This document shows positions 15,277 to 17,455 of a stretch of 64,000 nt of DNA, piece by piece. The DNA comes from an uncultured Sphingomonadales bacterium. GTDB lineage: Bacteria; Pseudomonadota; Alphaproteobacteria; Sphingomonadales; Sphingomonadaceae. The notes beneath the pieces were generated by a model. It made no database searches, had not been told where the DNA came from, and saw only the letters and a list, made by a program, of their open reading frames with translations. The DNA lies in the NCBI GenBank assembly GCA_903832325.1, contig CAILBC010000023.1:62001-126000 (forward strand), in the 5' to 3' direction. Position numbers and translations under genes: made by a program. Numbering within the stretch: position 1 is the stretch's first letter; every line of letters begins with the position of its first letter.

Positions 15277-16155
15277 ATGACACCCGATCCGATCCTGTGG
15301 AACGACTGGCACCCGGTCGCGGCGCGCTGCACGCTGGACCCGGGCCGCGCGCATCACACCGTGCTGCTGCATGTGCCGCTGGTGGTCACGATCGATGCCG
15401 CCGGCACGATCATCGCGCGGCGCAACGATGGCGCGCCGCTGCAGCAGTGCGAACGATACGGGCTGGTCTGGGTTTGCCTTGGCACCCCGGTGCAGCCGGT
15501 GCTGGCCATTCCCGAAGCCGATGAGCCCGATCGCCCGCCAGTGGTGGTGGGCGCAATCGGCGTGCGCGCCGCGGGCCCGCGCGTGATCGAAAATTTCCTC
15601 GATCTGGGCCATCTCGGCTATGTCCACGCCGGCTATCTGGGCGATGATCCGCAAACCCGGGTGCTGCCCTATGACGTGGCGCCGCTGCCCGATGCGGGCG
15701 TGCATGGCGGGCTGATCGCCACGCGCTGCCGGATGTACCAGCCAAAGGCCTCACCCGCGGCGACCGAGGGCTTTCTGGTTGACTATTTCTACAAAGTGGA
15801 GCGGCCGCTGGCGACGTGCCTTTACAAGGACAACCCCGTGCACCGCGACCGGTTCGACGTGATCTACCTGTTTGTCCAGCCGGTGACCGAAGTGACCAGT
15901 ATTGCCCACCCGCTGTTGCTGTGCCTGCCCGATGGCACCACGCCGGCGGCGCTGCGCGCGTTTCAGCAGATCATCTTCATGCAGGACAAACCGATTCTGG
16001 AAAACCAGCGCCCGGCGCGATTGCCGCTGTATGACGGGGCGGAACTGCCGATCGGGGCAGACCGGTCGTCGGTCGCCTATCGCCGTTGGCTGGCGGCGAT
16101 CGGGCTGCGCTGGGGCGTGATCACCGCGACAGAAGCGGCCGGAGCGCCCCGATGA
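15277..16155 (+). CDS. Rieske-oxygenase catalytic subunit lacking the [2Fe-2S] ligand loop (NdmC-like)
   Basis: N-terminal Rieske scaffold remnant (NDWHPVAARC...LVVTIDAAGTIIARRNDG-APLQQCERYGLVWVCLGTP) without CxH/CxxH; mononuclear iron motif ENFLDLGHLGYVHAGYLG intact. Confidence 0.82.
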   Translation: MTPDPILWNDWHPVAARCTLDPGRAHHTVLLHVPLVVTIDAAGTIIARRNDGAPLQQCERYGLVWVCLGTPVQPVLAIPEADEPDRPPVVVGAIGVRAAGPRVIENFLDLGHLGYVHAGYLGDDPQTRVLPYDVAPLPDAGVHGGLIATRCRMYQPKASPAATEGFLVDYFYKVERPLATCLYKDNPVHRDRFDVIYLFVQPVTEVTSIAHPLLLCLPDGTTPAALRAFQQIIFMQDKPILENQRPARLPLYDGAELPIGADRSSVAYRRWLAAIGLRWGVITATEAAGAPR

Positions 16156-16832
16156 GCGCCAACGACGGGGGCACGTTTGATGCCGGCGCCCGGCCCGACT
16201 TCTGGCCCGACTTCTGGCCCGGATTTTCGCCCGGCGACTGGTATGCGATTGCCGCCGACCATGACGTTATTCCCGGCCACATCTATCGCACCACGCTGGG
16301 CGGGCACGATCTGGCGGTGTGGCGCACGCGCGATGGCACGGTGCAGATCTGGCGCGATCGCTGCCCGCACCGCGGCGTGCGGCTGTCGCTGGGCGAAGTG
16401 GCGGGCGATGAACTGCGCTGCCAATACCATGCCTGGCGCTTTGCGCGCGGCGGCGCCTGCACGTACATCCCGGCGCAACCGGCGATGAAAGTGCCCGGCA
16501 CGATCCACGCCGAAGTCTGGCCCGCAGCCGAAGCCGGCGGCCTGATCTGGAGCGGGATCGATCCGCAGGGTGCCCCCCCGGCGCTACCCGCCGGCACCGT
16601 GGTGCGCGCATTGCCCGTGGCGCGCCCGGCCGCGGTGGTGGCCGAGGCGCTGGCGGAAACCGATTGGCCCGGCCTGGCGCTGGTGGTTCAGCCTGCCGAT
16701 GCGCAATCGGCGATCGTGCGCGGGGTGGCAACCGATGGCGATTGCCTGGCGGCGGACCGCCTGCTGCGCGCGCTGCGCCGCCGGATCGAACAAAATGGCC
16801 CGGAGCAAAATGGTGGGGAGCGGGGGGCATGA
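16152..16832 (+). CDS. Stand-alone Rieske [2Fe-2S] protein
   Basis: GDWYAIAADHDV...LAVWRTRDGTVQIWRDRCPHRGVRLSLGEVAGDELRCQYHAWRF gives CxH...CxxH; no DxxHxxxxH catalytic domain. ATGA overlap with upstream gene. Confidence 0.88.
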   Translation: MSANDGGTFDAGARPDFWPDFWPGFSPGDWYAIAADHDVIPGHIYRTTLGGHDLAVWRTRDGTVQIWRDRCPHRGVRLSLGEVAGDELRCQYHAWRFARGGACTYIPAQPAMKVPGTIHAEVWPAAEAGGLIWSGIDPQGAPPALPAGTVVRALPVARPAAVVAEALAETDWPGLALVVQPADAQSAIVRGVATDGDCLAADRLLRALRRRIEQNGPEQNGGERGA

Positions 16833-17455
16833 TCCTGTACGATGCGCACCATCTGGCGCCCTGCTATGCCGTGCGCCTGCTCGCCGGGCTGCTGGGCGTG
16901 CCGCTGACGCTGGCGCCGATGGATGTCTATCCCGGCCACGATGATCAGACCGACGCGTTTCTGGATCTGGCGCCGGCAGGGCGGCTGCCCGTGCTGATCG
17001 ACGGGGACCGCGTGCTGGGCGATTGGCAGGAAATCCTGGCGCATCTGGCGCTGGGCCATGGGCCGGCCTGGTTTCCGGCGGACAAACCGGCGCTGATCGG
17101 CTGGCTGGGCCTGGCGCGCGATCTGGGCGGCAGCGCGGGGCTGGCCCGGATGATCGATACCTTTGGCGCGGCCGGCGATGCTGCTGCGGCGCGGGCAGAG
17201 GCCGATCGCCTGCTCGATCACGCCGAACGCCATCTGTGGTTTGCCGAGCGCGCGGGCGGGCAATGGCTGCTGCCCAGGCCCACGCCAACAATTGCCGATG
17301 TCGGCTGTTTCGTGTTCATCGCGCCGTGCGAAGATGGCGGCCTGTCGCTGCGCGACCGGCCCGCGCTGCGCCGCTGGTGCGACCGGGTGCGGTTTCTGCC
17401 CGGGTTTGTCGCGATGAGCGGCGTGTTCCCGCCGATGGCCAACACGCCCCGCTGA
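16829..17455 (+). CDS. Glutathione S-transferase-like protein (NdmE-like by context)
   Basis: N-terminal thioredoxin fold (LYDAHHLAPCYAVRLLAGLLGVPLTL...LAPAGRLPVLIDGDRVLGDWQEILAHLA) and helical C-domain (PTPTIADVGCFVFIAP). ATGA overlap with upstream gene. Confidence 0.82.
   Translation: MILYDAHHLAPCYAVRLLAGLLGVPLTLAPMDVYPGHDDQTDAFLDLAPAGRLPVLIDGDRVLGDWQEILAHLALGHGPAWFPADKPALIGWLGLARDLGGSAGLARMIDTFGAAGDAAAARAEADRLLDHAERHLWFAERAGGQWLLPRPTPTIADVGCFVFIAPCEDGGLSLRDRPALRRWCDRVRFLPGFVAMSGVFPPMANTPR

What the first reader, a model, noticed from the sequence alone, without database searches (positions are those of the whole stretch)
15277..17455. Split Rieske oxygenase + separate Rieske protein + GST: an NdmC/NdmD-Rieske/NdmE-like assembly
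Seen: three genes joined by ATGA overlaps. Gene 1 has the mononuclear-iron motif (ENFLDLGHLGYVH) but no [2Fe-2S] ligands; gene 2 has only a Rieske domain (CPH...CQYH); gene 3 is GST-like. Established: in the Pseudomonas putida CBB5 caffeine pathway, the 7-methylxanthine N-demethylase NdmC lacks a Rieske centre, receives it from the extra N-terminal Rieske domain of the reductase NdmD, and needs the GST-like protein NdmE. Inference: this cluster uses the same three-part logic, but the Rieske donor is a free-standing protein rather than part of a reductase, which would be an unusual architecture and possibly a new N- or O-demethylase.
Basis: partly seen in the sequence, partly recalled or inferred. 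Interest (0 to 1): 0.85.

Follow-up and report, generated by a model that had tools for sequence, protein, structure and literature searches.

The report
Two-gene split oxygenase for purines
A Novosphingobium genome carries an oxygenase whose two working halves sit on two separate proteins, each keeping a wasted remnant of the half it lost, plus a scaffold protein; it is a reductase-free cousin of the caffeine-degrading NdmCDE enzyme and probably acts on purines, although its substrate is untested.

Summary
Three genes joined by ATGA overlaps encode a Rieske-less oxygenase with all iron ligands (15277-16155), a separate Rieske protein (16152-16832) and a GST-like protein (16829-17455). Gene 1 lies in the same Rieske-less clade as NdmC of a caffeine-degrading Paraburkholderia (41% identity), but not in the NdmC branch itself. 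New here: gene 1 keeps a Rieske domain with the cluster-binding part cut out, and gene 2 keeps a collapsed oxygenase catalytic domain without iron ligands. Profile comparisons beat every permuted control, and both AlphaFold models match the same complete oxygenases (SxtT/GxtA) best. The two genes look like complementary, degenerate copies of one ancestral subunit. The free-standing Rieske form is a recurring minority (18 loci, against 62 with an NdmD-like fusion), conserved under purifying selection, usually with no reductase nearby. Relatives sit beside purine transporters, guanine or adenosine deaminases and, in 16 of 80 loci, formaldehyde-detoxification genes. Best reading: a heteromeric oxygenase, probably a methylpurine N-demethylase, with the GST as scaffold and reductase supplied in trans. 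Substrate, stoichiometry and electron donor are untested. New variant of a known kind; interest about 0.62.

The parts
15277..16155 (+). Gene 1: Rieske-less oxygenase catalytic subunit (NdmC-like), 292 aa
   Evidence: PF19112 E 1.9e-16; 2040 homologues; AlphaFold pLDDT 91, best fold matches GxtA/SxtT
15277..15483 (+). Vestigial Rieske domain of gene 1 (residues 1-69): Rieske fold lacking the cluster-binding part
   Evidence: hhalign to the gene 2/NdmD Rieske profile E 1.1e-15, score 80.6 against at most 17.1 in 60 permuted controls; gap in A1 opposite the full-length Leptolyngbya oxygenase
15589..15627 (+). Mononuclear-iron motif ENFLDLGHLGYVH (residues 105-117); bridging Asp D109, ligands H112 and H117
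   Evidence: invariant in 56 homologues; positions
15985..15987 (+). Third iron ligand D237 (IFMQDKPILENQ)
   Evidence: invariant
16152..16155 (+). ATGA start/stop overlap, gene 1/gene 2
   Evidence: sequence
16152..16832 (+). Gene 2: free-standing Rieske subunit, 226 aa
   Evidence: PF00355 E 1.3e-21; 131 homologues, most of 190-240 aa and mostly listed with a Rieske domain only; AlphaFold pLDDT 91
16362..16430 (+). [2Fe-2S] ligands CPH...CQYH (residues 71-93)
   Evidence: invariant in 69 homologues
16584..16793 (+). Vestigial catalytic domain of gene 2 (about residues 145-214): strand-helix and strand-strand-helix kept; the iron-ligand segment and the strands between are lost
   Evidence: hhalign to the gene 1 family E 2e-5 to 6e-5, score 38 against at most 18.7 in 180 permuted controls; Foldseek alignment of about 260-280 columns with whole SxtT/GxtA
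16829..16832 (+). ATGA start/stop overlap, gene 2/gene 3
   Evidence: sequence
16829..17455 (+). Gene 3: GST-like (NdmE-like) protein, 208 aa; usual GSH-binding Glu/Asp-Ser replaced by Asp-Trp
   Evidence: PF13409 E 3.6e-08; 43% identity to NdmE of P. caffeinilytica; motif comparison
12619..15084 (-). TonB-dependent receptor, divergent neighbour (probable outer-membrane uptake)
   Evidence: PF00593/PF07715; same order in L032 and L114
11193..12578 (-). Nucleobase permease (Xan_ur_permease family)
   Evidence: PF00860 E 8.8e-43; conserved next to the cassette in L032 and L114

Best explanation
Genes 1-3 encode one heteromeric Rieske oxygenase of the NdmCDE type, without a fused reductase. Electrons reach gene 2's [2Fe-2S] cluster from a reductase or ferredoxin encoded elsewhere. 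They then pass across the subunit interface to the mononuclear iron of gene 1, through the kept bridging Asp (D109), in place of the Rieske-to-neighbour transfer of an ordinary alpha3 oxygenase. Each partner keeps the folded remnant of the domain it lost, which probably preserves the old subunit contacts; gene 3 is a structural, probably non-catalytic, third subunit. The substrate is most likely a purine base, imported by the adjacent TonB receptor and nucleobase permease, and the reaction most likely oxidative N-demethylation giving formaldehyde and xanthine or guanine. Shown: gene models, ligands, homology of both vestiges, conservation, recurrence. Inferred: partnership and electron path (about 0.85), purine substrate (about 0.7), N-demethylation (about 0.5), trans reductase (about 0.8).
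For: Homology to a genuine NdmABCDE cluster of caffeine-degrading P. caffeinilytica. Rieske-less clade, SH-aLRT 96. Complementary vestiges; both models' best fold matches are the same enzymes SxtT/GxtA. All five Novosphingobium carriers among 196 genomes keep the three genes together. Purifying selection on all three. Purine context: guanine deaminase in 18 of 80 loci, BMP-type nucleoside ABC genes in 51 of 80, nucleobase permeases, adenosine deaminase (annotations). Formaldehyde genes: FrmA or FghA in 16 of 80 loci, mostly just downstream of the GST gene, including the free-Rieske locus L074. The genome has xanthine dehydrogenase, urate oxidase and OHCU decarboxylase to use the product. NdmCDE in the literature is a 3:3:3 complex and NdmE is non-catalytic (PMC10380055, PMC4408171).
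Against: No experiment. No formaldehyde genes were found beside the Novosphingobium copies. The window's branch groups with uncharacterised rhizobial oxygenases, not with NdmC proper. The only NdmD-like reductase in the genome is a DmmA-like protein beside a haem-dependent N-demethylase, so the electron donor is unknown. No complex could be modelled here.
Confidence: 0.6

Rival explanations
1. The same heteromeric oxygenase, but a purine hydroxylase (Mo-independent, HpxDE-like) instead of an N-demethylase.
For: Purine deaminases and transporters next to relatives; HpxD-annotated oxygenases are distant homologues and hpxDE oxidises hypoxanthine and xanthine (PMC7373994).
Against: The host already has Mo xanthine dehydrogenase and urate oxidase; formaldehyde genes recur beside the family; HpxD hits are only about 30% identical and cover 75% of the query.
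Confidence: 0.2
2. The same heteromeric oxygenase acting on a non-purine substrate (for example an O- or N-methyl aromatic), with the purine genes coincidental.
For: Novosphingobium is rich in oxygenases (33 Rieske-domain matches in this genome); TonB receptors import many compounds.
Against: Purine-uptake or purine-deaminase genes recur beside homologues in unrelated bacteria with different transporters.
Confidence: 0.12
3. A decayed relic of an NdmCDE cluster that lost its reductase domain.
For: Lacks the reductase half of NdmD; gene 1 and gene 2 both carry degenerate domains.
Against: pN/pS 0.26-0.50 for all three genes; all ligands invariant; 131 gene-2 homologues, most of 190-240 aa; Rieske tree puts the window's free form outside the fused clade, with a single origin of fusion not rejected, p-AU 0.65.
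Confidence: 0.03
4. Gene 2 is a general Rieske ferredoxin serving several oxygenases, not a dedicated partner of gene 1.
For: The genome holds many oxygenases without an obvious reductase.
Against: Gene 2 is an oxygenase-type subunit with a collapsed catalytic domain, not a small ferredoxin; its start overlaps the stop of gene 1; the same trio recurs.
Confidence: 0.05

Closest known systems
NdmCDE, 7-methylxanthine N7-demethylase of Pseudomonas putida CBB5 and relatives
   Same: Rieske-less catalytic subunit, Rieske donor on a second protein, GST-like third protein; each about 41-43% identical to the P. caffeinilytica set; purine permease nearby.
   Different: Rieske subunit not fused to a reductase; no NdmA/NdmB beside it; catalytic subunit in another branch; substrate unknown.
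Uncharacterised ndmCDE homologues of Sinorhizobium/Mesorhizobium (e.g. S. meliloti pSymA)
   Same: Closest well-sampled fused relatives of gene 1 (50% identity); purine context.
   Different: Two tandem Rieske-less oxygenases and an NdmD-like fusion.
Free-Rieske sets of Rhizobium phaseoli, Paracoccus alcaliphilus, Rhizobium tumorigenes, Asaia
   Same: Free Rieske protein + Rieske-less oxygenase, with a GST in most, near (8-oxo)guanine deaminase and BMP ABC genes.
   Different: Gene order differs; Paracoccus adds a separate PDR-type reductase.
SxtT / GxtA (SxtDIOX) Rieske oxygenases
   Same: Best solved-structure match of both gene 1 and gene 2, by sequence and by fold.
   Different: Complete alpha3 enzymes with both domains on one chain; saxitoxin biosynthesis.
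HpxDE, Mo-independent (hypo)xanthine hydroxylase
   Same: Rieske oxygenase acting on purines.
   Different: HpxD carries its own Rieske domain (own knowledge) and is only about 30% identical.

Membership tests
NdmCDE-type split Rieske oxygenase | Catalytic subunit with mononuclear-iron ligands but no [2Fe-2S] ligands | tested here: met
NdmCDE-type split Rieske oxygenase | Catalytic subunit in the same Rieske-less clade as NdmC | tested here: met
   all Rieske-less rows in one clade, SH-aLRT 96; not in the NdmC sub-branch
NdmCDE-type split Rieske oxygenase | Rieske domain carried by a second protein encoded with it | tested here: met
NdmCDE-type split Rieske oxygenase | Rieske domain fused to an FMN/NADH/plant-ferredoxin reductase (NdmD) | tested here: not met
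   gene 2 ends at 226 aa; no NdmD-like reductase in the window or genome except a DmmA-like protein
NdmCDE-type split Rieske oxygenase | GST-like third protein (NdmE) | tested here: met
   43% identity to NdmE of P. caffeinilytica
NdmCDE-type split Rieske oxygenase | N7-demethylation of 7-methylxanthine | not testable with these tools
   needs enzyme assay
NdmCDE-type split Rieske oxygenase | 3:3:3 complex dependent on the GST for solubility | not testable with these tools
   literature only (PMC10380055)
Canonical alpha3 Rieske oxygenase (VanA/SxtT type) | Rieske and catalytic domains both functional on one chain | tested here: not met
HpxDE purine hydroxylase | HpxD-like complete oxygenase | tested here: not met
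   about 30% identity, no Rieske ligands in gene 1
Catalytic glutathione S-transferase | Glu/Asp-Ser motif for glutathione binding | tested here: not met
   Asp-Trp in Novosphingobium, Asp-Ala in most relatives

The most novel reading that the evidence does not exclude
A duplicated Rieske oxygenase subunit divided its two domains between two genes by complementary decay, giving a stable heteromeric enzyme (gene 1 : gene 2 : GST, perhaps 3:3:3) that borrows electrons from a shared reductase. This free-Rieske form is the ancestral state from which the caffeine enzyme NdmCDE arose by fusing gene 2 to a reductase, and the stretch between the Rieske and reductase parts of NdmD is a dead catalytic domain.
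Probability: 0.4. Interest if true: 0.75.

Novelty: new variant of a known kind. Interest (0 to 1): 0.62.

Why it matters
NdmCDE was described as the first Rieske oxygenase split across proteins (PMC4408171), and its complex was still unsolved in 2026 (PMC13237722). A reductase-free version offers small, separable pieces to solve that complex and to test how electrons cross between subunits. The complementary vestiges give a concrete, testable route by which a homo-oligomeric two-domain enzyme became heteromeric. If the substrate is a methylpurine, the family links a widespread but uncharacterised gene set to salvage of methylated nucleobases in many bacteria.

Tried and rejected
Xanthine/urate (NMT1) riboswitch or other Rfam element near the cassette: none in the window, nor a regulatory RNA in eight relative loci. 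Sigma-70 promoter and terminator scans: nothing. A dedicated reductase in cis: none in the window; the single genome hit is a DmmA-like protein beside a haem-dependent N-demethylase, a pairing also seen in two other carriers, so probably not dedicated. A PF00970 search gave one weak match. Free-Rieske form as degraded NdmD: disfavoured by conservation and by the Rieske tree, though the rooting is weak. NCBIfam gave no family for gene 1 or gene 3.

Full report
WHAT IS THERE. The three genes are as described: gene 1 at 15277-16155, gene 2 at 16152-16832 and gene 3 at 16829-17455, all on the + strand, with two ATGA overlaps. Pfam finds VanA_C, Rieske and GST_N respectively. Gene 1 has D109-x2-H112-x4-H117 and D237, invariant in 56 homologues; gene 2 has C71-x-H73 and C90-x2-H93, invariant in 69.

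RELATIVES. Gene 1 has 2040 homologues at E<=0.001. The plasmid collection gave annotated loci, among them P. caffeinilytica CF1. Its cluster is a genuine NdmABCDE: two oxygenases match solved NdmA (E 1.6e-194) and NdmB (E 2e-206), and the reductase matches the NdmD ferredoxin domain (E 2.6e-38). Against that set, gene 1 is 41% identical to NdmC, gene 2 is 42% to the N-terminus of NdmD over 160 residues, and gene 3 is 43% to NdmE.

ARCHITECTURE. A genome scan gave 80 further loci. I classified the Rieske gene at each locus, plasmid loci included. 62 loci carry an NdmD-like Rieske-reductase fusion, and 18 (counting the window and three plasmid loci) carry a free Rieske protein with no reductase in the same ORF. 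A few loci are cut by contig ends or unclassified. The scan kept the best matches to an alignment that already held free forms, so the ratio is not a census. Of 196 genomes of the genus, five have gene 1. All five also keep gene 2 and gene 3 in the same order. Free forms occur in Alpha-, Beta- and Gammaproteobacteria and one Eremiobacterota MAG.

PHYLOGENY. In the gene 1 tree all Rieske-less proteins form one group away from complete oxygenases (SH-aLRT 96). The window sits with Novosphingobium and one gammaproteobacterial copy, near the rhizobial first-copy oxygenases; NdmC of P. caffeinilytica and relatives lies in a separate branch. In the Rieske tree, free forms fill several deep branches and most fused ones form a nested group. 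A single clade of fused forms is not rejected (p-AU 0.65). This favours, weakly, free first and fused later. Several complete-oxygenase rows are long branches and the outgroup is not one clade, so the root is uncertain; these were quick-search trees.

COMPLEMENTARY VESTIGES. Gene 1's first 69 residues align with the start and end of a Rieske domain, with a gap where the ligand-bearing part would be. Its profile matches the Rieske profile with E 1.1e-15, score 80.6; 60 permuted or reversed controls reached at most 17.1. Gene 2's C-terminal part matches the gene 1 family with E 2e-5 to 6e-5, score 38; 180 controls over three alignments reached at most 18.7. The matched parts are the first strand and helix of the catalytic domain and its last two strands plus C-terminal helix; the iron-ligand segment and the strands between are missing. 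AlphaFold models of both are confident (pLDDT 91). Foldseek places both best on SxtT/GxtA; for gene 2 the alignment spans about 260-280 columns, TM up to 0.76, thus into the catalytic domain. Both proteins therefore look like copies of one complete subunit that lost opposite halves. The NdmD region between its Rieske and reductase parts matches the free gene 2 C-terminus (E 4e-20), so the same remnant appears in NdmD.

WORKING MODEL. In known Rieske oxygenases the Rieske cluster of one subunit lies about 12 A from the iron of the next, against about 45 A within a subunit (PMC12445004). If gene 1 and gene 2 pack as neighbouring subunits once did, gene 2 can feed gene 1. NdmCDE is reported as a 3:3:3 complex with a non-catalytic NdmE (PMC10380055). 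Gene 3 lacks the usual glutathione-binding Ser, which fits a scaffold role. Stoichiometry here is not known.

ELECTRONS. Free-Rieske loci usually lack a nearby reductase; Paracoccus is the exception. Genome-wide, N. aquimarinum, Asaia W19 and Rhizobium BK251 have only weak matches to the Paracoccus reductase (E 7e-15, 2e-8, 8e-16). In the window's genome the best match is DmmA-like, next to a haem-dependent N-demethylase, and the same pairing is seen in two other carriers. A shared reductase in trans is the simplest reading.

SUBSTRATE. The window has a nucleobase permease and a TonB receptor next door; L032 and L114 keep the same order. Relatives sit by guanine deaminase (18 of 80), BMP-type nucleoside ABC genes (51 of 80), adenosine deaminase (4), nucleobase permeases or XDH. 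FrmA (15) or FghA (10) occur in 16 of 80 loci, mostly just downstream of the GST gene, as expected if formaldehyde is made. No control set of loci was scanned, so enrichment is judged only against the naive expectation of one to a few such genes per genome. The host genome has a purine pathway: Mo-XDH, urate oxidase, OHCU decarboxylase, deaminases. A methylpurine, such as a methylxanthine or 7-methylguanine, is the most likely substrate, at about even odds for demethylation.

NOT A RELIC. pN/pS between the window and two congeners is 0.26-0.30 for gene 1, 0.43-0.50 for gene 2 and 0.34-0.41 for gene 3.

VERDICT. The added findings are that the free-Rieske form is a recurring variant, that it may predate the fusion, and that each partner keeps the remains of the other's domain. 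In the papers that could be read here I found no description of the free-Rieske form or of the vestiges; subscription papers, including the 2013 NdmCDE paper, were not held.

Noticed in passing
L022:9986-14246 (S. meliloti RCAM1750; also pSymA of strain 1021, L021): Two tandem Rieske-less oxygenases share one NdmD-like fusion and one GST, common in Mesorhizobium, Aminobacter and Labrys; no function found. A two-enzyme version of the system.
   Followed up: partly
L025:5749-12403 (Klebsiella pneumoniae SKGH01 plasmid, urine isolate): An NdmCDE-like island with a TIM-barrel protein and a 2-oxoglutarate/iron oxygenase on a conjugative plasmid, flanked by insertion sequences.
   Followed up: no
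L030:1315-6969 (Leptolyngbya boryana plasmid): A complete SxtT-like oxygenase directly downstream of a BMP-type nucleoside ABC transporter: possible living relative of the unsplit ancestor.
   Followed up: partly
L026:6941-7228 and L028:15072-15377: An acylphosphatase gene lies near the free-Rieske trio in both Rhizobium phaseoli and Paracoccus; reason unknown.
   Followed up: no
G000 contig C36 (L121:519-17615): Purine catabolic cluster of the same genome: OHCU decarboxylase, urate oxidase, xanthine dehydrogenase, guanine deaminase-like proteins, TonB receptor, permease, nucleoside hydrolase.
   Followed up: yes
G000 contig C26 (L112:5563-12245): Haem-dependent oxidative N-demethylase, DmmA-like reductase and an aminomethyltransferase fused to DUF1989.
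   Followed up: partly
window 45866-59326, - strand: A single open reading frame of 4486 residues with a signal-like start, probably a giant surface protein; not examined.
   Followed up: no
whole genome of the window: 33 Rieske-domain matches in one genome with few obvious reductases, so shared electron supply is likely common here.
   Followed up: no
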